From Eubacteriaceae bacterium UBA4266 (GTDB lineage Bacteria; Bacillota; Clostridia; Eubacteriales; Eubacteriaceae): a DNA stretch of 21,787 nucleotides. How positions within the stretch are numbered: the first letter of the stretch is position 1; each line of letters opens with the position of its first letter. Shown piece after piece: positions 2,954-21,787 of the stretch. Below the pieces are notes generated by a model. That model was not told the DNA's origin and did no database searches. It saw nothing but the letters and a program-made list of their open reading frames with translations. The translations under genes and the position numbers were made by a program. The stretch covers positions 1 to 21,787 of the forward strand of contig DGWE01000081.1 in NCBI GenBank assembly GCA_002396065.1, read 5' to 3'.

Positions 2954-4369
2954 TTATTTAATGTTGAAGGCGTCGCAGAGTACGCATCTTCTTCTTCTTG
3001 CGAAGGTCTTTGCTGAGGTCAAGCCTTCACCGGTCGGGCCAGCGATGGTAAAGGTCGGATAGCCTTCGCCGCCAGCGCCCAGTCCTGCGTAGGAAGGACC
3101 GTTCTTGACAAAGATCGTGGAAGCGATCTTCTTGGACATCTTAGACAGCGCGTCGACGTTCTTGGAGTGCATCGTCGCAGTGTGGCGGTTGCCGTGTTCC
3201 AATTCGCAGGCCAGATCGATCCCTTCGTCGACGTTGTCGACGCGGACGATCCCGAGGATTGGCATCATTAATTCGATCTGTACCAATGGATGGTCAGCCG
3301 GCAGTTCGCCGATTAAGACTCTGGTGTCTTCCGGTACGTCGATGCCAGCAGCCTTAGCGATGTATTTCGCGTCTTTCCCGACATAGTCACGGGAGACACG
3401 GCCGTCTGGTGCGACCATCGCAGCCAAATCGTCGAGCACCTTGCGGTCCTTGATTTCGAAAGCGCCGTTCTTCTTCATGTTGAAGATCAGGTAATCAGCA
3501 ACCTGGTCGACGACGACAACTTCTTTTTCAGCGATACACGGCAGGTTGTTGTCGAAGGTGCAGCCATCGATGATATCTTTTGCTGCTTTTTCGATGTCAG
3601 CCGTTTCGTCGACGAGTGCCGGTGGGTTCCCAGGGCCAGCGCCGATGGCTTTCTTGCCGCTTGACAGAACCGCGTGAACAACGCCAGGGCCGCCTGTTGC
3701 GCAGAGGAGTCTGACATCAGGATGGTGCATCATGACATTAGCGGATTCCATTGTCGGGTGTTCGGTGGACACGACCAGGTTAGCCGGGCCGCCTGCTGCT
3801 TCGATGGCCTGGTTGACCAGTCTGACGCAGTAGAGTGAAGTCTGGAGTGCGCCTGGGTGCGGAGCGAATACGATCGCGTTCCCAGCAGCTAACATACTGA
3901 TCGAGTTGTTGACGATGGTTTCATTCGGGTTGGTTGACGGGCAGATCGCACCGATGACACCGAATGGCGAGAGTTCAAGTAAGGTTAAGCCTTCATCGCC
4001 TGTCCAGCAGTTCGCCTGGAGATCTTCCATCCCAGGTGTCTTTTCTGCACAGAGATAAGCCTTGGTCAGTTTATCTTCGACATTGCCCATGCCTGTTTCT
4101 TCAACGGCCATGTTGACGATGGTTTCGACGGTTTCCTTTTTCGTAAAGGTTTTGCGAATTTCATCAATAATTTTGTAGCGCAGTGACAATGGGCGCATCT
4201 TGTAGTCGTTCCACGCGGCCTGAGCTGCTGCGATGGCATCTTCCATATCTTCGAAGATCCCGTCTTTGCCCTTGGCACCTTGTGGAGCTGGTGCAACGCC
4301 GTTAGCTTCGTCAATGGATGACATCACTCTTTTAACGATTGCTTCAATACCAGCTGTATCTATATTCAT
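2954..4369 (-). CDS. pduP: CoA-acylating propionaldehyde dehydrogenase PduP
   Basis: The 471-residue product belongs to the PduP/EutE aldehyde dehydrogenases and turns propionaldehyde, NAD+ and CoA into propionyl-CoA. The catalytic cysteine is Cys278 in FDNNLPC. Residues 1-20 (MNIDTAGIEAIVKRVMSSID) form an amphipathic helix typical of microcompartment encapsulation peptides, followed by an Ala/Pro/Gly linker and the catalytic core from about residue 40. The C-terminus RRRRCVLCDAFNIK is typical of the family. The length is normal. The ATG start is preceded by AGGAGG. A second, shorter enzyme of this family is encoded at 18660-19955. Confidence 0.96.
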   Translation of the reverse strand: MNIDTAGIEAIVKRVMSSIDEANGVAPAPQGAKGKDGIFEDMEDAIAAAQAAWNDYKMRPLSLRYKIIDEIRKTFTKKETVETIVNMAVEETGMGNVEDKLTKAYLCAEKTPGMEDLQANCWTGDEGLTLLELSPFGVIGAICPSTNPNETIVNNSISMLAAGNAIVFAPHPGALQTSLYCVRLVNQAIEAAGGPANLVVSTEHPTMESANVMMHHPDVRLLCATGGPGVVHAVLSSGKKAIGAGPGNPPALVDETADIEKAAKDIIDGCTFDNNLPCIAEKEVVVVDQVADYLIFNMKKNGAFEIKDRKVLDDLAAMVAPDGRVSRDYVGKDAKYIAKAAGIDVPEDTRVLIGELPADHPLVQIELMMPILGIVRVDNVDEGIDLACELEHGNRHTATMHSKNVDALSKMSKKIASTIFVKNGPSYAGLGAGGEGYPTFTIAGPTGEGLTSAKTFARRRRCVLCDAFNIK

Positions 4370-7458: not shown

Positions 7459-8112
7459 CTATTTTTTAATAATGATTTTGACACTGCTGCCTTTCTTTAA
7501 GCCTGCCGCTTTCGCTTCGTCGCCGGTCAGCATCAATTCGTGCCGGCCGTCTTCGGTGACGTGGACGAGGACATTTTCAAAAATCGTGCCGTCGACTCCT
7601 CTGGAATCGACTGAGACAGTGTCTTTGTCTTTGAGCTGCAGCTCTTCTGCGATGTAGGTCGGCAGGTTCACACTCCGTCGCGGAATGATCGCGCCCTTTT
7701 CACAGGCGACTGCTCCGGCCGGACCGACAATTCTGCAAGCCGCCGATTGATAATCGTCCTTCGATTCGCGCACCGGCGCATCGACGCCGATGGCTTCGCT
7801 TTCCGACCTGGACAATTCAATGACCGGGTCCTGATCATCATCGAGCAGCGGCCCGAAAATGTAGCCGTGGGTTGAACCCTTCGGCCCGCTGATGGCGACG
7901 CCTTCTTCATAATAAAAAGAATTCAGATCCTTCGCCCGGGTTAAGACGGCGTGAGATCCGAAAAGCTGTTCCACCGTTTTCTGGCTGCAGTAAATGTGTG
8001 CGCTGGGGATGCCCAGCGTGATGAGCTCAGGCGATTCTTCGCATTTTTTCGCCTTCTGAAAGGCTTCCAAAATGATTTGAACCATCTGGCTGATCTGTTG
8101 TTCAGTGTACAT
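7459..8112 (-). CDS. pduL: PduL-family phosphotransacylase homologue with degenerate metal site
   Basis: The 217-residue product starts at ATG 8112 (AAAGGGGAG upstream) with a probable encapsulation helix (about 2-22). The two PTAC half-domains are clear: GPKGS, IELSRSESEAIGVDAPVRES, a second IVGPAGAVACEKGAII, and DEAKAAGLKKG near the end. PduL normally converts acyl-CoA and phosphate to acyl-phosphate, freeing CoA, with zinc ions held by histidines. Here the first RHVHLS motif reads AHIYCS (H39 kept, second His is Y41), the second RHIHM motif reads RSVNL (S147, N149), and the late His before DTDEA is replaced by Met. Only one of these histidines remains. The frame is intact, so it is a preserved gene of doubtful catalytic ability. 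Confidence 0.88.
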   Translation of the reverse strand: MYTEQQISQMVQIILEAFQKAKKCEESPELITLGIPSAHIYCSQKTVEQLFGSHAVLTRAKDLNSFYYEEGVAISGPKGSTHGYIFGPLLDDDQDPVIELSRSESEAIGVDAPVRESKDDYQSAACRIVGPAGAVACEKGAIIPRRSVNLPTYIAEELQLKDKDTVSVDSRGVDGTIFENVLVHVTEDGRHELMLTGDEAKAAGLKKGSSVKIIIKK

Positions 8113-8153
8113 ATTTCGGCTCCCCTTTCTTGTTTGCGACAAGTCCAGATTGC

Positions 8154-8570
8154 TTAATTCTTCTTGTCTACTGGATCGGGCATTTCCGTTTTCGTTCCCC
8201 GGGAGGGTTCGAATTGACTTCCGAAGGTCGGAATGTTCCAGTAATACTTCATCCAGTATTTGTCCCGCACATTTGCAGGATCAAAGCCTTTTGTCTGTGT
8301 ATTGTAGACCATCGGCATCAGTCCGTCTGAGGGTCTGGCGATGACGATAGCTGACTGACAGCCATTGCCTTTGTCGCAGGCCGCTTCACCGGCAGCGACC
8401 GCTGCCTTGCAGGCGCCGACGTCTCCCAATACCTTGACAACATGCATGCCGCCGCCTCGGCTGGACTCAATGCCCAATAGACAGACATTCGCGGCCTTGA
8501 CAGCTGCGTCAGCTGCCTCAATGGCTGTTGCAAGTCCCTTGGCTTCGATAAAGCCAATAGATTGGCGCAT
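8154..8570 (-). CDS. pduK: PduK-like BMC shell protein with C-terminal extension
   Basis: The 138-residue product has one BMC domain (about 2-85) starting MRQSIGFIEAKGL, with a glycine-rich pore loop SSRGGGMH. The domain is followed by an aromatic-rich tail of about 50 residues (KYWMKYYWNIPTFG) that belongs to no shell domain. The place between pduH and pduL is that of pduK. Enteric PduK also has a C-terminal extension, but with a cysteine cluster; here all four cysteines (30, 54, 65, 71) lie in the BMC domain and the tail has none. The symbol therefore rests on position and architecture. The spacing to pduH is 28 bp. Confidence 0.8.
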   Translation of the reverse strand: MRQSIGFIEAKGLATAIEAADAAVKAANVCLLGIESSRGGGMHVVKVLGDVGACKAAVAAGEAACDKGNGCQSAIVIARPSDGLMPMVYNTQTKGFDPANVRDKYWMKYYWNIPTFGSQFEPSRGTKTEMPDPVDKKN

Positions 8571-8598: not shown

Positions 8599-8964
8599 TC
8601 ACGCGTCTAAAGATTTAAACGGCATCCGCTTGATCAAGCGGGCTGCATTGGCACCGATGGCCCGCAGCTTTTCTTCTCCGGCACTCGGCGCTACGGTGAA
8701 CAACGGTTTGCCGCCTTTCAGTTTGATAAAATGAAGGGCGATCGTCTTGCTGTCGATCCCGATGCCGACGCCCAGATGGGAATCTTCTGCCGCTCTATAC
8801 GCTAAATCTTCTGCCGAAATTTTATCTGTTTTGTCTTCGTGCTTATAAGGCAAGCCTTCTTCTTCGATCCCGAGGATGACTTCTGTGACGACGTCCTTCG
8901 GCACCGAGCCCTTAATGCTGTATACGACAATTTCAGGTTTTGGTGCTTCTAATCCGGGATTCAT
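8599..8964 (-). CDS. pduH: Diol dehydratase reactivase small subunit PduH
   Basis: The 121-residue product is the small subunit of the diol dehydratase-reactivating factor, which exchanges damaged cobalamin out of PduCDE together with PduG. The family pattern is visible: IVVYSIKGSV at the start, ILGIEEEGLPY, GVGIGIDSKTIALH and GANAARLIKRMPF at the end. It starts at ATG 8964, one base after the pduG stop, with AAAGGAGAG inside the pduG 3' end. The open frame extends 27 codons further upstream inside pduG, without a better ribosome site. Confidence 0.93.
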   Translation of the reverse strand: MNPGLEAPKPEIVVYSIKGSVPKDVVTEVILGIEEEGLPYKHEDKTDKISAEDLAYRAAEDSHLGVGIGIDSKTIALHFIKLKGGKPLFTVAPSAGEEKLRAIGANAARLIKRMPFKSLDA

Positions 8965-8965
8965 A

Positions 8966-10780
8966 TTACTCTCCTTTGCAATATGAGAGAACAAGACCGG
9001 TTGCCACGGCGTTTCTCGGACCTTCCGTCCCTCTGATGTTCGCACGTCCGGCTACGATAGAGTAGCGCGACAGCGCGTCTGTGATCAGCTGTGGGATTTC
9101 AAAGTCGAGGGATGAGCCGCCGACCATTGTAACGTATTCCATATCGCGGGCGTTCCCCGTCGGGCTGACACGTTCCAATGCGCGGATGGCGTTGACAACG
9201 AAAACCTTTTTCTTCGCTTCCTGGCGGACCGTTTTGATCCGTTCAACTGTCAGGTTGCCTGGCAGCGGCACCATGCCGTCTGGCGTCAGGATGACCACTC
9301 TGGCAAATACAGTTGGTGGAAGCTGATTTTCAAAGAATTCTACAGAACCGTCTTCGTGACGAATGTGGAACAGGCTTTCAACCTTTGCGACTGGATATTT
9401 TTTGATATCTTCTGCGGTGTGCATGTCTTCGATGCCGAGTTCAGAACCGATGAGCATCGTAACCATGTTGCCGGCGCCTGCCAAATGAATGAAATGAATT
9501 TTGTCTTCGCGGTTGATGATCGCGGCATCTGTCGAGCCGGCCCCCATATCGAGGATCGCCATCGGCTTGTCCGCACCCGGTGTGGTCAACGCACCGAGAA
9601 TCGCCATCTGCGCTTCGACGCCGCCGACTTCGACCTTGACGTTCAATTCTTTTTCAAGTTCTTCGGCGATCATGTTCATCTGCAGTCTGTCCGCCTTGAC
9701 CATCGCGGCCAGCCCAACGGCGTTTTCCATTGAAAATTCGTTGGCCATCCCGCCTTTAACGGCCTGAGGGACGAAGGTATCTACAGCCAGAATATCCTGG
9801 ATCTGGATTTTATCCGGTGATTGGTTGGTCAGATTGGACATCACCTGACGGACGCGTTCGAGCATGCCGCCGGCATTTGTCCCCGGTTCCCCGGTCACAT
9901 CTTCCACAGGCTGAACGCTTCTCAGCGCTTCCATGATTTCTTCAGCACCTGAGTCAACGGGTACTTCGGTCTTCTTGTTTTCGCCCTGAATGATGATTTT
10001 GCCAGCCGGGATCTTTCTTTCTTTAACATCCCCTGCTGGCGTTTTGATGATAACCGCTGAACGGTTTCCGATTAAGGCACGTGAAATCGGCACGACCTGC
10101 TTCGTTTCTTCTGGATTTAAATCAAAAACGGTCGCAATCCCGTAAGGGTTCGACAGCTGTTCGATGACCTTACCGGGTTCGGCGACTTCTACAGCCGCCC
10201 GCATGCCAATCGGCACCTTGTCGATTAATGCGACTTCATCTACAATCGGTATTTTTTTGTTTAAGCGGTTGTTGATCAAAACACCATCGTCGCGCTGCAC
10301 GATCGCGCCGTTGACGTGAACGCCGCGTTCCACAGCTGTGTTGATCATCTTCGACGAGGTTTCAAAATCAACTTCTCTCGGAATCACCACAATGACCGCT
10401 TCCCCAGCATTGACCTGGGTCAAGTTGCGGATATTGATGGTTTCGCCGACGCCGGTTCCCAATCCACCCGGAGTGGATGGATTGTGACCGATCATCGTGG
10501 ATTCTGTGATAATCGTTTCTGTGATGGTTTCCATCGCCACATCGCCGATAACAGGAGCTGCTTCGTTAAGACGAATCAGCTCCACATCATCAAGCGTTAA
10601 ATTGGCTTTGTCCAAGGCTTGCTTTAAGGAGGCGAAGACACCGTGGATATTCTGACGCGTCCCCTTGATCCCGGTTGTCGCGACGATCCCACTGGCTAAA
10701 AATTCAGGTTTATTGTGATCAACGCGTGCCAATGCCGTTTCAGTACTGGCGTTGCCGATATCAATCCCTGCAATAATCAT
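8966..10780 (-). CDS. pduG: Diol dehydratase reactivase large subunit PduG
   Basis: The roughly 604-residue product is the ATPase subunit of the reactivating factor, an actin/Hsp70-like fold. The N-terminus GIDIGNASTETALA and the later DMGAGSTDAAI are the two phosphate-binding motifs; GLGTGVGETINIRNL and ATGLVLSYCKG are also typical. ATP hydrolysis drives release of inactive cobalamin from the dehydratase. It starts at ATG 10780, five bases after GGAGG; a TTG at 10792 contains that ribosome site and is unlikely to be the start. The length is normal for the family. Confidence 0.95.
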   Translation of the reverse strand: MIIAGIDIGNASTETALARVDHNKPEFLASGIVATTGIKGTRQNIHGVFASLKQALDKANLTLDDVELIRLNEAAPVIGDVAMETITETIITESTMIGHNPSTPGGLGTGVGETINIRNLTQVNAGEAVIVVIPREVDFETSSKMINTAVERGVHVNGAIVQRDDGVLINNRLNKKIPIVDEVALIDKVPIGMRAAVEVAEPGKVIEQLSNPYGIATVFDLNPEETKQVVPISRALIGNRSAVIIKTPAGDVKERKIPAGKIIIQGENKKTEVPVDSGAEEIMEALRSVQPVEDVTGEPGTNAGGMLERVRQVMSNLTNQSPDKIQIQDILAVDTFVPQAVKGGMANEFSMENAVGLAAMVKADRLQMNMIAEELEKELNVKVEVGGVEAQMAILGALTTPGADKPMAILDMGAGSTDAAIINREDKIHFIHLAGAGNMVTMLIGSELGIEDMHTAEDIKKYPVAKVESLFHIRHEDGSVEFFENQLPPTVFARVVILTPDGMVPLPGNLTVERIKTVRQEAKKKVFVVNAIRALERVSPTGNARDMEYVTMVGGSSLDFEIPQLITDALSRYSIVAGRANIRGTEGPRNAVATGLVLSYCKGE

Positions 10781-15083: not shown

Positions 15084-16313
15084 TTATTTTTTTACCGATT
15101 CAAAGGCGTCAACCTTTTCCCAGGGCAGGCCTTCCTTCCCGAAATGGCCGTAGGCTGCCGTCTGTTTGTAGATCGGACGGGCCAGTCCCAGGCCGTCGAT
15201 GATGTCCGGCACCGCGAAGGACACGTGCTGCTCAATCATTTTTTTGATTTTCCCTTCGTCGGCCTTCGCCGTCCCAAAGGTGTTGATTTCAAACATTTCC
15301 GGTTCTTCCCGTCCAATGGCGTAGGCCAGCGCCACCTCACAGCGCTTCGCCAGTCCGCAGGCGACGACGTTCTTCGCCAGATACCGCGCCATGTACGCGC
15401 CGGAGCGATCCACCTTGGTCGGATCCTTGCCGGAAAACGCCCCGCCGCCGTGGTGGCAGGCGCCGCCGTAAGTGTCCACCATCAGCTTGCGCCCGGTCAG
15501 CCCGGTGTCGCCCAAGGGCCCGCCGATGACGAACCGGCCCGACGGATTGATGTGCAGCTGCGTGTCCGTCGTGATTTGATCGGCGCCGATCGTCGCCTCA
15601 AAAACCGGTACCACCACGTGCCGCACCAAAGCCTGCTGCAGCGCCTGCAGCTCGATCGCCGGATCGTGCTGCGCCGACAGGACGATCGATTTGACCCGGT
15701 TTTGGCCGTCGAGGGTCACCTGAGACTTGCCATCGGGGCGCAGCCAAGGCAGCGTGCCGTCCTTACGGACCGCCGTCAGACGCTTCGACAGCGCCGTCGC
15801 CAGCACAAAGGGCAGCGGCATCAGCGTATCCGTCTCGTCGGTCGCGTAGCCGTACATAATCCCCTGATCGCCGGCGCCGACATGGCGGACCTTGTAATGC
15901 TCGCCGGGTGCTCTGTCTTCCGGCGGCAGCCATTTGCATCGGACCTTTCCGCCGACCCACTTCGCTGTCTCAATCGTATCCTGTTTTGAGACCGCCGCAT
16001 TAATATCGGCCGACTGCGCGTTGACGTTGGTCATGACGAGGCAGTTTTCAGCGTCGAGCCCGACTTCCTCGGACGTGTAGCCGATATCCGCCGCCGTCTT
16101 TCTCGCAAGGGCTTCAATCTGAATCGCGCCGTTTTCTAATAATTCCGGCGAAATCTCTCCCGCCAGAAACAACATATTTTTTGAAGCCATCACCTCAATG
16201 GCCGTGTGGCTTTCCGGATCGTCAGCGAGGCAGGCGTCGACAATGCCGTCCGCAATCTGATCGCAGAGCTTATCCGGATGGCCTTCTGTTACAGATTCTG
16301 CTGTTCTTTTCAT
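15084..16313 (-). CDS. metK: S-adenosylmethionine synthetase MetK
   Basis: The 409-residue product makes SAM from methionine and ATP. Family motifs are complete: ESVTEGHPDKLCDQIAD at the N-terminus, GAGDQGIMYGYATDET in the middle, and GGGAFSGKDPTKVDRS with KVD later on. Its ATG overlaps the stop of the response regulator gene (ATGA, 16310-16313), so it is translated with the regulators, an unusual place for a housekeeping enzyme. SAM is consumed by the glycyl-radical activating enzyme at 20250-21185 and by corrinoid biosynthesis. Whether this is the only metK of the genome or a pathway copy cannot be seen here. Confidence 0.96.
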   Translation of the reverse strand: MKRTAESVTEGHPDKLCDQIADGIVDACLADDPESHTAIEVMASKNMLFLAGEISPELLENGAIQIEALARKTAADIGYTSEEVGLDAENCLVMTNVNAQSADINAAVSKQDTIETAKWVGGKVRCKWLPPEDRAPGEHYKVRHVGAGDQGIMYGYATDETDTLMPLPFVLATALSKRLTAVRKDGTLPWLRPDGKSQVTLDGQNRVKSIVLSAQHDPAIELQALQQALVRHVVVPVFEATIGADQITTDTQLHINPSGRFVIGGPLGDTGLTGRKLMVDTYGGACHHGGGAFSGKDPTKVDRSGAYMARYLAKNVVACGLAKRCEVALAYAIGREEPEMFEINTFGTAKADEGKIKKMIEQHVSFAVPDIIDGLGLARPIYKQTAAYGHFGKEGLPWEKVDAFESVKK

Positions 16314-17341
16314 CTTGTACCACTTTTATTTTGTACTTTTGTCTTCTTCTTTTCTTCCCGAACCATTTTCTTGTAAGTTGAAATGGTCATCTTTTCGTAT
16401 TTCTTAAACAACTTGCTGAAATAAGAGCTTTCGTTGTAGCCCAGCCGGTAGGCGACGTCGGTGACGCTGTCGCTGGTGACGCAGAAATACCACTTGGCCT
16501 GCATCATGCGGCACAGATGGATGTACGTCATCACAGAGATGCCGAGGGTTTTCTTGAAAATCCGGCTCAGGTAACCCTGGGACAAGCCGCTGTTCTCCCG
16601 CACCTCTCTGAGTCCGATGTTCTCGCCGATGTGTTCATCTATATATAGGAAAGATTTTTTCATCGCCGGGTAAAGGGCGATGGCCTTGTGCCTGAAGATC
16701 AAATCCAAGGTCGCGTACAGCCTGAATTCCAGCCAGCGCTCAACCGGCAGCATCTTCCCCGCCGGCCGATTGACGTAATTGGTCTCTTCGAGACAGCCGT
16801 ACTGGGCGAACAATTTGTTTTCAATCGTGTAATAATAGTCGATAATTTCGTCTGTCGCGTCCCAGCTTTCCTGCTTGATATTGTCGATCAGCTCGGGCAG
16901 CGCGTAATACATCGCGGCGTAATCGCTGCTGTCCACAATGCCGCAGATTTTATCGAAGGTGGCGTTGCGGCGCTGCTTCAGTCCGCGGAAGTTTTCCAGC
17001 AGCCGCTTGACCCGCGAAAAGCTCAGCGGCTTGAGCAGGTATTCGTCGACGCCGATGTGCACAGCCTCTTTCGCGAAATCAAAGGTATTGTAGGCGGAGA
17101 CGAGGTAAATCGTCACGTGAGGCAGCGCCTCACGGATCTTCTTGGCGGCCTGAATGCCGTTTTCGTCCGGCATCACCACGTCCATAAAGACGATATCCGG
17201 CCGAAAAGTCTTCACCTTCTCGACTGCTTCGGTCCCTGTTTTGGCGACGGTGCAGACTTCAAACCCGTCGACCATGCCGATCATCTGCTCCAGGGCCTCG
17301 CGCATCAACGGCTCGTCATCGACAATGAGCACCTCATACAT
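16310..17341 (-). CDS. AraC-type response regulator
   Basis: The 343-residue product has an N-terminal CheY-like receiver (1 to about 120) with acidic pocket D8/D9, phospho-acceptor D54, S82 and K104, all in place. A linker region of about 120 residues without recognised motif follows, then an AraC-type double HTH (about 240-340; FFSKLFKKYEK-like second recognition region). It should activate transcription on phosphorylation, with the pduA and glycyl-radical operons as likely targets. It overlaps the kinase gene by 8 bp and metK by 4 bp. Confidence 0.92.
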   Translation of the reverse strand: MYEVLIVDDEPLMREALEQMIGMVDGFEVCTVAKTGTEAVEKVKTFRPDIVFMDVVMPDENGIQAAKKIREALPHVTIYLVSAYNTFDFAKEAVHIGVDEYLLKPLSFSRVKRLLENFRGLKQRRNATFDKICGIVDSSDYAAMYYALPELIDNIKQESWDATDEIIDYYYTIENKLFAQYGCLEETNYVNRPAGKMLPVERWLEFRLYATLDLIFRHKAIALYPAMKKSFLYIDEHIGENIGLREVRENSGLSQGYLSRIFKKTLGISVMTYIHLCRMMQAKWYFCVTSDSVTDVAYRLGYNESSYFSKLFKKYEKMTISTYKKMVREEKKKTKVQNKSGTR

Positions 17342-18545
17342 CGCTGCGGCCTCCTTCCGGAATGCTGATCACGAGGCGGTTAAGGCCGTCCTCTGTGGTG
17401 CGGGCGATGTGATAGCCCGTGCCGTAAATCCGGCCCAGCTTGTCACGGACCGCTTCAATGTTGGCTTCCACCGAGTAATGCTTTTTCGCTTCTGTCGGCA
17501 GCTCGGCCACTTCCTCAGGCACCACATTGTCTTCGATCTCGCAGATCAGCTGACCGGATTCCTGGGAAATGCGCACGAGGATCTGCCCGTCCTGATTCTG
17601 GTTGACCAGCCCGATGGTGCTGTGTTCGACAAAGGGCACGAGCATCATTCTCGGGATTCGGCACTTCATCATGTTCCGCGGCACATCGATTTTGTACTGA
17701 ATGCGGTCGCCGAAGCGCACCCCCTGAATGTGCAGATAGCATTCCACCGCTTCGGTTTCCTGCGCGACTGTCCAGTAGGTGTCGTGTTCAAACAGAGTAT
17801 CTCTGAGGAAATCGGAAATCAGCGTGATCATCTCATTGGTCCGCATCGCGCCTTCGATAATCGCCAGATTCGCGGCAGAGGTCAAAGAATTGAACCAAAA
17901 ATGCATGTTCAGCCGGTTCTCGAGATTTTCTTCCCGGGGCTGACTGTCCCTTCTCTCGTAGGCCTCAATTTTTCGGTACTGCTGCTCGATGATGGTGGCG
18001 TCCTGTTTGGCGTGCGCCCTCTGCTGATCCAGCTGATTTTCCAAATCGATGCGCTTGCCGAGCCACATTTTGACCATTTGAGCCGCACCCTTTAACTGCG
18101 CTGCAGTAAAAACTGGCATCGCATCGATCAGCATCTGATTGACCTTGCAGAACGTCTCGGCCTTTTTATCCAAACCCTTGTCGTAATCCGCAAAGCCGTC
18201 CAGGCCGCGCTCGACGCGCACCGGCCCGCCCTGAACGGCGCCGAGGTACTCGCCATCCTTCTCAAAGGGGACCACAAAAAAAGTCAATTGCTTCAAAGTC
18301 CGGTAAATGAGCACGTCCCCGTCGGTCACCGCCTGAATGCTGGCTTCTCGAGCTGATTTTTCAAGCGTCTTTTTGATCTCGCGCCAATTTTCGCTTTCCC
18401 TCAAAATCGGGGCACCCTCGTTTTCCGGCGCCAGCGCGCGCCCCTTGTAGTCGATCAAGCGGCAGGCGGCACCAGTTGCTTGTTGAAAGGTCTGCTGAAT
18501 TTGTTTAAATTCGTCCGATCCCGCCCATTTTTCAAATTCCGACAT
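17334..18545 (-). CDS. PocR-domain LytS-type sensor histidine kinase with altered ATP site
   Basis: The 403-residue cytosolic product has no membrane segment. Residues about 5-165 look like a PocR ligand-binding domain (FKQIQQTFQQATGAACRLID, then FFVVPFEKDG and GAVQGGPVRVERG); PocR of Salmonella responds to 1,2-propanediol. A coiled coil (about 165-212) leads to a His_kinase (LytS-type) core with H215 in MHFWFNSL. The ATP-binding part departs from consensus: the N-box Asn is His308 (PFVEHSTIGL), the G1 box reads EDNVVPEE, and the GxGL motif of the last box is missing. It may be a weak kinase, a phosphatase or a ligand-controlled scaffold. Start ATG 18545 has AGAGGA upstream. Confidence 0.85.
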   Translation of the reverse strand: MSEFEKWAGSDEFKQIQQTFQQATGAACRLIDYKGRALAPENEGAPILRESENWREIKKTLEKSAREASIQAVTDGDVLIYRTLKQLTFFVVPFEKDGEYLGAVQGGPVRVERGLDGFADYDKGLDKKAETFCKVNQMLIDAMPVFTAAQLKGAAQMVKMWLGKRIDLENQLDQQRAHAKQDATIIEQQYRKIEAYERRDSQPREENLENRLNMHFWFNSLTSAANLAIIEGAMRTNEMITLISDFLRDTLFEHDTYWTVAQETEAVECYLHIQGVRFGDRIQYKIDVPRNMMKCRIPRMMLVPFVEHSTIGLVNQNQDGQILVRISQESGQLICEIEDNVVPEEVAELPTEAKKHYSVEANIEAVRDKLGRIYGTGYHIARTTEDGLNRLVISIPEGGRSDV

Positions 18546-18585
18546 GTTCCGTCCTCTTTTCTCTCAAATTGTTTCTTTTTTTCCT

Positions 18586-18614
18586 ATTTTAAGAAAAAAA
18601 TGAGAAAATTTCAA
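18586..18614 (-). promoter_or_regulatory. Sigma-A promoter of the kinase-regulator-metK operon
   Basis: On the minus strand TTGAAA (18609-18614) and TAAAAT (18586-18591) are separated by 17 bp; each hexamer matches consensus at five of six positions. Transcription would start near 18579, giving a leader of about 35 nt before the kinase ATG. An imperfect AT-rich palindrome just upstream (about 18619-18645, TTTGA/TCAAA core) could be an operator. Confidence 0.75.
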
Positions 18615-18659
18615 CACATAATTGTTTGACTATTCAAATTATAGTGTTTTATTTTTCAA

Positions 18660-19955
18660 TTACTTTATTTGAAACGCCTCCGACAACACACAGCGTCTGC
18701 GGTGAGTGAAATGTCTTGCCGAAATCGGCCCTTCGCCGGTCTGAGAGGCGATGGAAAAGGCACAGGGCACGTCCACGCCGAAGCCAATCGACGAAATGAA
18801 CGGCGCGTTTTTGACAAAAATAGCCGTCCGCATCGCTCTCGCCGCTTCATCTAAGCGTTCGATGCTGCGGCTGTGAATCCCAGCTGTGTGATGGTAATTT
18901 TGTTCAACCTGCGATGCCGCGGTCAGCGCCGATTTAAAGTCCGGCATCCGGACCATCGGCACAATCGGTATCTTGACCTCTTTCATCACGAGCAGATCGT
19001 TCAGACGGGCCTCGCCCACCGCGAGCTTCGCCGGATAATGGTACACGACGCCCGCGCGGTCCAAGATTTCTTTCAAGGGCCGGCCTTCGTACCGTCTGGC
19101 CACGTCGCCGTCGGCATTGAACATCAGGCGCTCTACCTTTTCCATGTCTTTGCTGTCGAGCACCTGAACGCCCACTCTCGCGAAAGCGGTCAAAAGCGGC
19201 TCCGCGACGCAGTCCAGCGTCACGATGGCTTTTTCCGACACGCACATCAAATTGTAATCAAAGGCCGCGGATTCCGCGATAGCCGACGCCGCGCGGTCGA
19301 GATCCGCCGTTTCGTCGACGATGACCGGCGGATTGGCCGGTCCCGCGCCGATGACCTTTTTGTCAGCCCGGAATGCTGCGCTCACCGCTGTGCTCGATCC
19401 GGTCACGACAATCATGTCCACGTCGGGATGATTCATCAGCTGTTCGCTGACATTGTGGCCTGTTGTCGGCAGCATCGAGACCAAATGATCGATACCAATC
19501 GCTTCTTTAATGCTCGCGTTGATCAATTCAACCGCCGTCTGACTGCTGTGGAACGCTCTCGGATGAGGGCAGTGGATGATGGCGTTGCCCGCCGCCAAGG
19601 CCGAAATCGTCGTGTTGATCAATACCGCGATGGGATTGGTGCACGGGTGAACCGCGGCGATAACGCCGCAGGATGAAAGCTCAGTCAAGACGATGCCGTC
19701 GTCATTGGTGAGCACCTCTGTCTGCAAATCCTCGACCCCTGGCGTCTTGTCGACGGCCAACGCAATTTTTCTCGCCTTGTCTACGGAATGCCCCATGCCG
19801 GTTTCACGACAGGCCATTTCCGCGAGATTCATCACGGCGCCCTTCAGCCCTGTCCGAACGGCTTCGATCGTTCTTTTCCTATCTTTAAGTGTGCATTGTC
19901 TGTACGCCGTGTAGGCTTGTCCTGAAGCGCAGACAATTTGTCCTATCGCATCCAT
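18660..19955 (-). CDS. CoA-acylating aldehyde dehydrogenase (PduP/EutE family) without encapsulation peptide
   Basis: The 431-residue product is a second PduP/EutE-type enzyme, with catalytic Cys238 in FDYNLMC, the segment AIGxGPANPP-like GAGPANPPVIVDETADLD and the C-terminus HRRRCVLSEAFQIK, close to that of PduP here. It starts at ATG 19955 with AAAGGA five bases upstream. Upstream in-frame codons to 20057 lack a ribosome site and run through a terminator hairpin, so a longer protein is unlikely. It begins directly at the catalytic core, without the helix-plus-linker of PduP. Next to a glycyl radical enzyme it probably oxidises the aldehyde made there. Whether it is cytosolic or encapsulated through another partner is open. 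Confidence 0.9.
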   Translation of the reverse strand: MDAIGQIVCASGQAYTAYRQCTLKDRKRTIEAVRTGLKGAVMNLAEMACRETGMGHSVDKARKIALAVDKTPGVEDLQTEVLTNDDGIVLTELSSCGVIAAVHPCTNPIAVLINTTISALAAGNAIIHCPHPRAFHSSQTAVELINASIKEAIGIDHLVSMLPTTGHNVSEQLMNHPDVDMIVVTGSSTAVSAAFRADKKVIGAGPANPPVIVDETADLDRAASAIAESAAFDYNLMCVSEKAIVTLDCVAEPLLTAFARVGVQVLDSKDMEKVERLMFNADGDVARRYEGRPLKEILDRAGVVYHYPAKLAVGEARLNDLLVMKEVKIPIVPMVRMPDFKSALTAASQVEQNYHHTAGIHSRSIERLDEAARAMRTAIFVKNAPFISSIGFGVDVPCAFSIASQTGEGPISARHFTHRRRCVLSEAFQIK

Positions 19956-20249
19956 TGTTTTCCTTTCTGAATTTCTTTGTATCATCGTTGTTCGAATGGC
20001 TTGTCTACTTATAAAAATAGGGCCCGAAAGTCGGACCCTGAAATCAAAACCGATCAAGACATCCTGAGATCAAAAAGAATGGGCTCTGAAAGCTCGTATT
20101 TCGGCCGCGTCACCCCACATTGTGACGCAGCCTATAAATAAATTTGTCTTGTCGTTTGTTTTGATTATTGAACGGCAATCCCTTTGTGACCGCCGAATCA
20201 ACCGTAATATTTGGCTATTTAACCTTGTTTTAATCAACCATCTTTTGTA
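19956..20249 (-). promoter_or_regulatory. Structured leader upstream of the aldehyde dehydrogenase
   Basis: This 294-bp gap after the activating-enzyme gene has no supported coding gene. It holds a perfect inverted repeat GCGTCAC-N8-GTGACGC (20107-20128) and, nearer the gene, an intrinsic terminator (20011-20039). Two stretches of the minus-strand RNA share the pattern CGA-CTTTC-GCCC-ATT-T-run (around 20075-20095 and 20010-20033). The arrangement could be an attenuator controlling the dehydrogenase, or simply the end of one operon and the promoter of the next. No recognised riboswitch class and no convincing -35/-10 pair were found. Confidence 0.4.
20011..20039 (-). terminator. Intrinsic terminator 55 bp before the aldehyde dehydrogenase start
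   Basis: In minus-strand RNA the arms AGGGUCCGA and UCGGGCCCU pair over 9 bp (one G-U wobble) around a three-base loop and are followed by AUUUUUAU. On the plus strand the wobble becomes an A-C mismatch and no T-run follows, so the element is oriented to stop minus-strand transcription. It lies in the 5' leader of the dehydrogenase gene rather than next to the preceding stop codon. Confidence 0.75.
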
Positions 20250-21185
20250 TTAACCGCCGATTTTGCACTTCAGGCCCGCCGCTTCGACCATGTCTTTGAA
20301 ATGATTCATCGTTTCCCGAGAAGGGGTTTTGGTCTCTGGCATCCGGTAAGGAATACCCAGCAGCTCGTATTTGTTTTCGCCTAAAGTATGGTAGGGCAGC
20401 AAATGTATTTCGTGGACGCCCTGCAGCGATTTCGCGTATTCGATAATTTCCGCGATGGTTTGATCGTCTGCGTTGACGCCCGGAATCGTCGGCACGCGAA
20501 TAATGGTTTCGCCTGCCTCCCGCGCGATGCGCGCCGCATTTTTTCTTATGACTTGATTGCTGACGTTGGTGAATTTCTTGTGAATCTCGTCATTGGGTGC
20601 TTTCGCGTCGAGTAATGCCAAATCAACATGAGGCAGCACCAGATCCAGCGCTTCCTCGTTGGTCGTGTAACCCGTCGTTTCAATCGTGGTGTTCCACCCC
20701 TGAGCCTTTGCAGCCTTGAGCAGTTCCGCCGCGAATTTGTACTGCATCAGCGGTTCCCCGCCCGACAGGGTCATGCCGCCGTTAGTTCTCCGGTAATAAC
20801 TGGCGTCTTTTTTGACTTCCCGGATCACCTGCTGGACGGTCATCTTTTTCCCCTTCTGAACCAGGGCGTCCGCCGGACAGACAGCTGCGCATTCGCCACA
20901 GCCGTTGCACTTATCGTAATCGATAAAATGCGGATTGTCCGGCGACAGGGCCCCCGGCACCGGACAAACCTTTAAACACGAGCCGCAGTGAATGCAGTTT
21001 TCAGCTTGATACAAAACAACGGGCTGAAGCTTCTGAGATTCCGGGTTACAGCACCACAGGCATCTCAGCGGGCATCCCTTCAAAAATACGATCGTTCGGA
21101 TGCCCGGGCCGTCGTTGAGAGAAAATCGCTGGATGTTGAAGACACTGCCTTCCATCCCATAATTGATATTATCATCTGCAAGCAA
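20250..21185 (-). CDS. Glycyl radical enzyme activating enzyme (radical SAM)
   Basis: The 311-residue product cleaves SAM to place the radical on the glycine of its partner enzyme. The radical-SAM cluster motif CxxxCxxC is at C38/C42/C45 in KGCPLRCLWCCNPES, followed by a two-cluster ferredoxin insert with cysteines 64/67/70/74 and 93/96/99/103, the form found in activators of diol-dehydratase and choline-lyase type enzymes and not in the short pyruvate formate-lyase activator. GGEPLMQ and the IIRVPTIPGVN strand are also present. The start is TTG 21185 with GAAGGAGAAG 5 nt upstream; the alternative ATG 21155 has no ribosome site. It lies 26 bp after the glycyl radical enzyme. Confidence 0.94.
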   Translation of the reverse strand: MLADDNINYGMEGSVFNIQRFSLNDGPGIRTIVFLKGCPLRCLWCCNPESQKLQPVVLYQAENCIHCGSCLKVCPVPGALSPDNPHFIDYDKCNGCGECAAVCPADALVQKGKKMTVQQVIREVKKDASYYRRTNGGMTLSGGEPLMQYKFAAELLKAAKAQGWNTTIETTGYTTNEEALDLVLPHVDLALLDAKAPNDEIHKKFTNVSNQVIRKNAARIAREAGETIIRVPTIPGVNADDQTIAEIIEYAKSLQGVHEIHLLPYHTLGENKYELLGIPYRMPETKTPSRETMNHFKDMVEAAGLKCKIGG

Positions 21186-21190
21186 CGCGG

Positions 21191-21200
21191 CTTCTCCTTC
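21191..21200 (-). promoter_or_regulatory. Ribosome binding site fixing the TTG start of the activating enzyme
   Basis: The minus strand reads GAAGGAGAAG here, five bases before TTG 21185. No comparable site precedes ATG 21155, which would otherwise be the conventional start of this family. Confidence 0.65.
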
Positions 21201-21211
21201 CGTTTAGATTA

Positions 21212-21787
21212 TTATTCGAATGTCTGTTCAGTTCTCGCGATGATGTCATCCTGAACGTCTTTAGCCAGAACGACGAACTGTGCGGAGTAACCGGCGACGC
21301 GGACGATCAAGTCTTTGTGCTGTTCCGGATGTTTCTGCGCTTCGAGCAGGGTTGCACGGTCGACGATGTTGAACTGAATGTGATAGCCCTTGTGATCAAA
21401 GTATGCTCTGACCAATGCCGAGAAGCGTTTCAGGCCTTCGTCGCCTGCAACGGCTGACGGTAAGAGTTTCTGGTTCAACAGCGTCCCATTACCGAAGTCG
21501 AGGGCGTCGATGGTTGCGGACGATGCGTTCGCTGCGGTCGGTCCGCTGACATCACAGCCGTGACGCGGTGAAATGTTGTCGGACAATGCGGTCTGCGCTA
21601 AACGGCCATCTGGCAGTGCGTCGACAGCACGGCCCATCCCAACGTTGGCTGAAACGGTGTAGCAGCCTGCGTGGTAAATCCCGCCACGTGGATTCTTCTT
21701 GCCGTGAACGTTGCTGGAGTAGATCTTCGTGATCCGGCGTCCGAGCAGGTCGACTTCTGGAATATCGTTCCCGAAGTGCGGTGAGTT
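21212..21787 (-). CDS. Glycyl radical enzyme (diol dehydratase/choline lyase-type), C-terminal part
   Basis: The last 191 residues of a glycyl radical enzyme are visible; the gene continues beyond the window. The glycyl radical loop is IVRVAGYSAQFV, near the C-terminus as expected, and NPRGGIYHAGCYTVSANVGMG, ALPDGRLAQ, NGTLLNQKLLPSA and HIQFNIV are typical of the family. Two TAA stops follow in tandem. The active-site cysteine and the residues that decide the substrate lie outside the window, so 1,2-propanediol or glycerol dehydratase, choline trimethylamine-lyase or another lyase all remain possible. The dehydrogenase downstream points to an aldehyde product. Confidence 0.93.
   Translation of the reverse strand, partial: NSPHFGNDIPEVDLLGRRITKIYSSNVHGKKNPRGGIYHAGCYTVSANVGMGRAVDALPDGRLAQTALSDNISPRHGCDVSGPTAANASSATIDALDFGNGTLLNQKLLPSAVAGDEGLKRFSALVRAYFDHKGYHIQFNIVDRATLLEAQKHPEQHKDLIVRVAGYSAQFVVLAKDVQDDIIARTEQTFE

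What the first reader, a model, noticed from the sequence alone, without database searches (positions are those of the whole stretch)
7459..8112. PduL homologue that has lost almost all metal-binding histidines
In characterised PduL the zinc ligands include two HxH motifs (RHVHL and RHIHM) and a later His before DTDEA. Here they read AHIYCS, RSVNL and LMLTGDEA, so one of five recognisable histidines remains, while the fold, the SR motif, the encapsulation helix and the reading frame are intact. The protein is preserved yet probably cannot recycle CoA in the usual way. It may be structural, bind another ligand, or use a different metal or chemistry. No other phosphotransacylase is in the window.
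Basis: partly seen in the sequence, partly recalled or inferred. Interest (0 to 1): 0.75.

Follow-up and report, generated by a model that had tools for sequence, protein, structure and literature searches.

The report
Dead PduL kept in microcompartment operon
The enzyme that normally recycles coenzyme A inside a bacterial protein organelle has, in the genus Pseudoramibacter, lost most of its metal- and substrate-binding residues yet is still kept by selection, so this organelle probably runs without internal coenzyme A recycling.

Summary
Window 7459-8112 (-) encodes a full-length PduL-fold protein in the pduL slot (pduK-X-eutJ) of a B12-type pdu operon. By PduL crystal-structure numbering, four of six zinc ligands are lost (H50Y, H157S, H159N, H204M), with the phosphate arginine (R103L), the QPG lid and five of six CoA contacts; H48 and E109 remain. 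The same ligand positions are lost in every Pseudoramibacter genome held that has the gene (4 of 5), including strain P. porci RF-744-FAT-4; the fifth has the operon without the gene. No canonical PduL was found in any of the five; the four nearly complete ones carry an ordinary Pta. The gene sits on a long stem while its neighbours do not, and is now under purifying selection (dN/dS 0.08-0.16). Best reading: a phosphotransacylase pseudoenzyme kept as organelle cargo, with CoA recycling outside. A class-wide sample gave two more degenerate PduLs, in a glycyl-radical-enzyme-type and an EUT2-type locus. Loss of the PduL dimetal site is well supported; loss of activity and the present role are inference. 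My searches found no published description.

The parts
7459..8112 (-). pduL-derived gene (here called PduL*), 217 aa, in the slot between pduK and eutJ
   Evidence: PF06130 E 2.7e-33; synteny with five operons of other genera
8120..8128 (-). Shine-Dalgarno-like AAAGGGGAG before the ATG at 8112
   Evidence: sequence
8035..8112 (-). predicted N-terminal encapsulation-type helix (helix predicted at residues 4-26)
   Evidence: model pLDDT about 71-78 there; hydrophobic moment reached by 30 of 5000 shuffles, but a canonical relative's helix did not stand out in the same test (1312 of 5000)
7996..7998 (-). codon of His39 = rPduL His48 (Zn1 ligand, kept)
7990..7992 (-). codon of Tyr41 = rPduL His50 (Zn1 ligand, lost)
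7843..7845 (-). codon of Leu90 = rPduL Arg103 (phosphate contact, lost)
7816..7818 (-). codon of Glu99 = rPduL Glu109 (Zn1 ligand, kept)
7672..7674 (-). codon of Ser147 = rPduL His157 (Zn2 ligand, lost)
7666..7668 (-). codon of Asn149 = rPduL His159 (Zn2 ligand, lost; Ser in P0004)
7531..7533 (-). codon of Met194 = rPduL His204 (Zn2 ligand and CoA contact, lost; Leu in G001)
8154..8570 (-). pduK-like BMC shell gene upstream
   Evidence: PF00936
6617..7441 (-). eutJ-like gene downstream
   Evidence: NCBIfam EutJ 385 bits, cut-off 182
2954..4369 (-). pduP, acylating aldehyde dehydrogenase that should still make acyl-CoA
   Evidence: PF00171; DNNLPC stretch seen in the sequence, catalytic Cys named from recall

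Best explanation
The protein descends from the PduL of the same operon slot but is no longer a PduL-type phosphotransacylase. It is a pseudoenzyme, kept as an encapsulated, non-catalytic core protein of the Pdu microcompartment: the N-terminal helix docks it and the double barrel packs against the enzyme core. PduP still makes an acyl-CoA inside. Because nothing inside turns this into acyl-phosphate and CoA, acyl-CoA and CoA must exchange with the cytosol, where Pta and AckA finish the pathway. Shown: residue losses, predicted fold, shared lesions across the genus, long stem, purifying selection, Pta and AckA in four congeners. Inferred: loss of activity, location in the organelle, structural role, cytosolic recycling.
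For: Four of six zinc ligands, Arg103, the lid and five of six CoA contacts lost. Of 43 columns at least 90% conserved in 278 canonical rows, PduL* rows lose 17-19; canonical rows lose a median of 1 and at most 7. Fold kept. No stop in 4 of 4 genomes with the gene; dN/dS 0.084, 0.130, 0.157, 0.097 in four pairs. Distance ratio to five other-genus operons 2.72 against 0.90-1.66 for the 16 other genes. G002 does without the gene. Pta and AckA in G001-G004. The PduL N-terminus is a known encapsulation signal (PMC12108088, PMC9132943; passages).
Against: His48 and Glu109 of the first zinc site are kept. 12 of the 18 changed formerly conserved columns are invariant in the genus, like other columns (109 of 145, p 0.41), so the old site is not visibly relaxed. 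The helix region is the least conserved part (10 of 28 residues invariant) and the helix test does not mark a canonical relative. G002 lacks the protein, so it is not essential for the operon. No activity, metal or location data.
Confidence: 0.6

Rival explanations
1. Neofunctionalised: the remodelled cleft binds another ligand or catalyses another reaction of the pathway, possibly with His39, Tyr41, Cys42 and Glu99.
For: Residues 35-60 are invariant at 24 of 26 positions in seven genus rows; 35 genus-invariant residues occur in under 2% of canonical rows at their column, among them Tyr41, Cys42, Tyr67, Tyr68, Tyr84, Phe86.
Against: Changed cleft columns are not more invariant than other columns (p 0.41). 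One genus member lacks the gene.
Confidence: 0.22
2. Still a phosphotransacylase, using one metal at the surviving first site (His48, Glu109, perhaps Tyr50 or Cys51) or a rebuilt site.
For: His48, Glu109, Ser127 and Gln107 are kept; no other PF06130 protein in the genus.
Against: Arg103, the lid and five of six CoA contacts are gone as well; PMC4784909 (passages) found all metal ligands absolutely conserved and Arg103 present in all homologues of its set.
Confidence: 0.1
3. A useless gene on its way to loss.
For: G002 has the operon without it. It evolves faster than most neighbours: 78% identity between G000 and G004 where eutJ has 99%, and dN/dS above 12 of 16 neighbours in G000-G003.
Against: No stop in four genomes; dN/dS 0.08-0.16 at dS 0.19-1.64, lower than pduH in each of the four pairs.
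Confidence: 0.08

Closest known systems
PduL phosphate propanoyltransferase (PF06130), Rhodopseudomonas palustris structure 5cuo
   Different: H50, H157, H159, H204, R103, the QPG lid and five of six CoA contacts lost
Canonical PduL of the same slot in five other genera-level operons of the family (G006, G007, G009, G018, G034)
   Same: Same gene order around it
   Different: Those keep all six ligands; only 33-39% identity to the window protein
G005 GRE-locus PduL (L079 10006-10665) and P0127
   Same: Degenerate PduL in a microcompartment locus; H50 and R103 lost
   Different: Second zinc site intact; nearest intact relative is P0128 (99/95), so probably a separate origin
G064 EUT2-type PTAC (L088 8896-9672)
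   Same: PF06130 over 3-176 of 176; five of six ligands and R103 lost
   Different: H204 kept, H48 and E109 lost; locus with eutH; no close relative found in 119 genomes sampled from its family
Pta (PF01515)
   Same: Catalyses the reaction that PduL does elsewhere; present in G001-G004
   Different: Unrelated fold without metals (PMC4784909, passages); not near the pdu locus in these genomes

Membership tests
PTAC / PduL sequence family (PF06130) | Pfam profile match over the cut-off, full length | tested here: met
   115.7 bits, cut-off 25, positions 3-176 of 176
PTAC / PduL sequence family (PF06130) | PduL double-barrel fold | tested here: met
PduL enzyme | Six protein ligands of the two zinc ions | tested here: not met
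   Two of six kept
PduL enzyme | Arg103 at the phosphate | tested here: not met
   Leu90
PduL enzyme | CoA-contacting residues | tested here: not met
   One of six kept in the window, Lys70
PduL enzyme | NCBIfam PRK15070 cut-off | tested here: not met
   120.8 bits, cut-off 209; canonical relatives were not run as a control
EutD, Gram-positive type (NF040837) | NCBIfam cut-off | tested here: not met
   98.3 bits, cut-off 315
PduL enzyme | Phosphotransacylase activity | not testable with these tools
   Needs purified protein
Pdu microcompartment cargo | pduL slot in a pdu operon | tested here: met
   pduK-X-eutJ as in five operons of other genera
Pdu microcompartment cargo | Encapsulation peptide | tested here: inconclusive
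   Helix predicted, amphipathic, but the test did not mark a canonical relative
Pseudoenzyme | Catalytic residues lost while the gene stays under purifying selection | tested here: met
   inactivity itself not tested

The most novel reading that the evidence does not exclude
PduL-type phosphotransacylases have become pseudoenzymes more than once, in three kinds of microcompartment locus (PDU in Pseudoramibacter, glycyl-radical-enzyme type in G005, EUT2 type in G064). These are natural metabolosomes without an internal, private CoA cycle, in which the dead enzyme has been repurposed as a core-organising or ligand-sensing protein.
Probability: 0.4. Interest if true: 0.78.

Novelty: new variant of a known kind. 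Interest (0 to 1): 0.6.

Why it matters
PduL is described as the core enzyme that recycles CoA inside metabolosomes, and its metal ligands were reported as absolutely conserved (PMC4784909, passages). Loci without PduL are known to be common (PF06130 in 66% of heterotroph loci, PMC4207490, passage); a preserved but dead PduL is what is new here. A genus that keeps the operon, the acylating dehydrogenase and a dead PduL, with one member lacking the gene altogether, is a natural test of whether a private CoA pool is needed. A named strain, P. porci RF-744-FAT-4, carries it, so the question can go to the bench. It would also separate PduL's scaffold role from its catalytic role, which matters for engineering microcompartments.

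Tried and rejected
Horizontal replacement by another PduL: the slot is the same, the careful 50-row tree puts the genus beside the family's operon PduLs (support 84/67, not strong), and grouping with seven non-operon paralogues of the family is rejected (p-AU 0.0102). Against this, the first, quick 55-row tree did not put the genus with the operon PduLs; it left it on a long branch near L066 and warned that long branches meet. In-place descent therefore rests on synteny more than on the tree.

One shared origin with the G005 lineage: 12 log units worse but not rejected (p-AU 0.093). Separate origin of these two is likely, not proven; G064 was not put in a tree.

A second canonical PduL elsewhere: PF06130 gave one hit each in G000, G001, G003, G004 and none in G002. 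A Pta with an encapsulation helix: none seen by eye at the N-termini of three of the five Pta proteins found (two of G002, one of G004). EutD in the genus' Eut locus: eight proteins of G004's locus were scanned, none PF06130; G002's locus was read only by its likeness to this, G001's only by its shell hits.

Ordinary divergence as the cause: 20 of 20 PTACs fetched from family f6, most of them its weakest hits to the G064 query, keep all six ligands and R103.

Dropped rows: one search translated the minus-strand loci on the wrong strand; they were redone. In one search the 16 deviating rows and P0218 were left out of the canonical set (278 rows). In one search the first 60 residues of the G064 protein were cut off before alignment. 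A PHROGs scan found nothing.

Literature: nine searches pairing PduL with zinc/histidine, lack, pseudoenzyme, PTAC/catalog and catalytically inactive, phosphate propanoyltransferase with active site and loss, and Pseudoramibacter with microcompartment or propanediol. In the listings, abstract starts and passages that I saw there is no degenerate PduL; the library holds open-licence papers only and I did not read whole texts.

Full report
What is there. The window is contig C69 of an unnamed assembly of 1.3 Mb, 66% complete. The minus strand carries a pdu operon: pduA B C D E G H K, X, eutJ, a flavoprotein-like gene, pduN O P S T (several gene names are by likeness and position). X, window 7459-8112, is the gene of the finding; I call it PduL*.

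How unusual. The final alignment has 316 rows: 245 proteins (the window's and those listed by three database searches; the last two list only the best 120), 49 PTACs fetched from genomes around the window, the 5cuo chain, 20 PTACs of family f6 and the G064 protein. Some rows are redundant. 300 rows have all six ligands. The 16 others are 7 Pseudoramibacter rows, 3 rows of one other lineage (L066, P0126, P0127), the G064 row, one row with H50Q (P0233) and 4 rows gapped at a ligand column. These samples favour good scorers. A fairer look was PF06130 in 391 genomes of the class, own genome included: 143 have a match. In 138 of them the best hit has E 3.6e-63 or better. The five weaker are G000 (the window), G005 and G064, full-length, and G343 and G393, pieces at contig ends. 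So all three full-length outliers are degenerate, two of them new. Only best hits per genome were compared; most of the 138 sequences were not read.

History. Five genomes of the genus are held. Four have PduL*, G002 has no PF06130 protein, and none has a canonical one. G002 is listed at 100% completeness with 6% contamination. It keeps the operon, with 97 bases between pduK and eutJ and no N there; the stretch where pduA and pduB would be is a run of unknown bases. Against five operons of the family from other genera, PduL* is 33-39% identical where eutJ is 73-85%; the distance ratio is 2.72 against 0.90-1.66 for 16 other genes. The careful tree gives the genus a stem of 1.82 changes per site beside the family's operon PduLs (84/67); an earlier quick tree did not place it there. 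Within the genus dN/dS is 0.084, 0.130, 0.157 and 0.097 in four pairs (Nei-Gojobori): below pduH in each pair, above most neighbours.

What it may do. Of 43 columns at least 90% conserved in 278 canonical rows, the window protein keeps 25 and changes 18. Twelve of the 18 are invariant in seven genus rows, against 109 of 145 other columns (Fisher p 0.41), so the old site is neither visibly relaxed nor specially constrained. Several changes put aromatics into or near the cleft (H50Y, A79Y, R97Y, L99F), which I read as filling of the cleft (inference; no coordinates were at hand). The N-terminal helix is amphipathic (30 of 5000 shuffles reach its moment), but the same test gave 1312 of 5000 for a canonical relative, 638 for G064 and 3372 for G005, so it is weak evidence, and residues 1-28 are the least conserved part (10 of 28 invariant). 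PduL's N-terminus is a known encapsulation signal in Salmonella (PMC12108088, PMC9132943; passages). Together I favour retained cargo or scaffold function at 0.6.

CoA. pduP looks intact, so acyl-CoA should still form (inference). Pta and AckA occur in G001-G004 and were not found in the incomplete own assembly. In 'Ca. P. fermentans' the predicted glycerol route genes, dehydratase and propionaldehyde dehydrogenase among them, were expressed above median levels, and the cluster was described as a glycerol-related microcompartment cluster (PMC6974650, section 13 read; passages). In what I read PduL is not mentioned. I did not link that species to one of the handles.

Recurrence. G005, another genus of the family, has a pdu operon with 45 bases between pduK and eutJ and no pduL there. 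It also has a separate locus with activase, metK, glycyl radical enzyme, pduA, pduB and pduP that holds a PduL with H50C and R103G but all three Zn2 histidines. P0127, 79% identical to it (context unknown), has H48Y, H50R and R103G. Their nearest intact relative is P0128 (99/95). G064, of another family, has a PTAC with only H204 left of six ligands, in a locus with eutH, a cobalamin adenosyltransferase-like gene and shell genes. No close copy was found in 119 genomes sampled from its family. G005 carries a Pta; G064 was not checked.

Limits. There are no activity, metal, location or protein-level data, no model coordinates to look for a rebuilt site, and few species in the genus. Independence of the lineages rests on locus type and, for two of them, one tree.

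Noticed in passing
L079 10006-10665 (+), genome G005: Second degenerate PduL lineage, in a glycyl-radical-enzyme-type microcompartment locus: H50C, R103G, Zn2 histidines kept; the relative P0127 has H48Y, H50R.
   Followed up: partly
L088 8896-9672 (-), genome G064: Third degenerate PTAC, in an EUT2-type locus; only H204 of six ligands remains.
   Followed up: partly
L046 503-601, genome G002; L080 6722-6768, genome G005: pdu operons with no pduL between pduK and eutJ (97 and 45 bases between the genes).
   Followed up: partly
L050, genome G004: Eut microcompartment locus without a PduL-type EutD; the genome's only PF06130 protein is the degenerate one in the pdu operon.
   Followed up: partly
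window 15084-21637 (-): Next to the pdu operon lie metK, a response regulator, a PocR-like sensor, a second acylating-type aldehyde dehydrogenase, a glycyl radical enzyme activase and the end of a glycyl radical enzyme, which is whole in G003 and G004. Its substrate is unknown to me.
   Followed up: partly
window 8599-9045 (-): pduH evolves fast for an operon gene: dN/dS 0.15-0.30 in four pairs, 67-68% identity to G001 and G004.
   Followed up: no
L058 15555-16508, L056 16919-17872: A 317-aa ORF between pduS and pduT in two relatives, absent from the window's operon; the L058 copy has no Pfam match.
   Followed up: no
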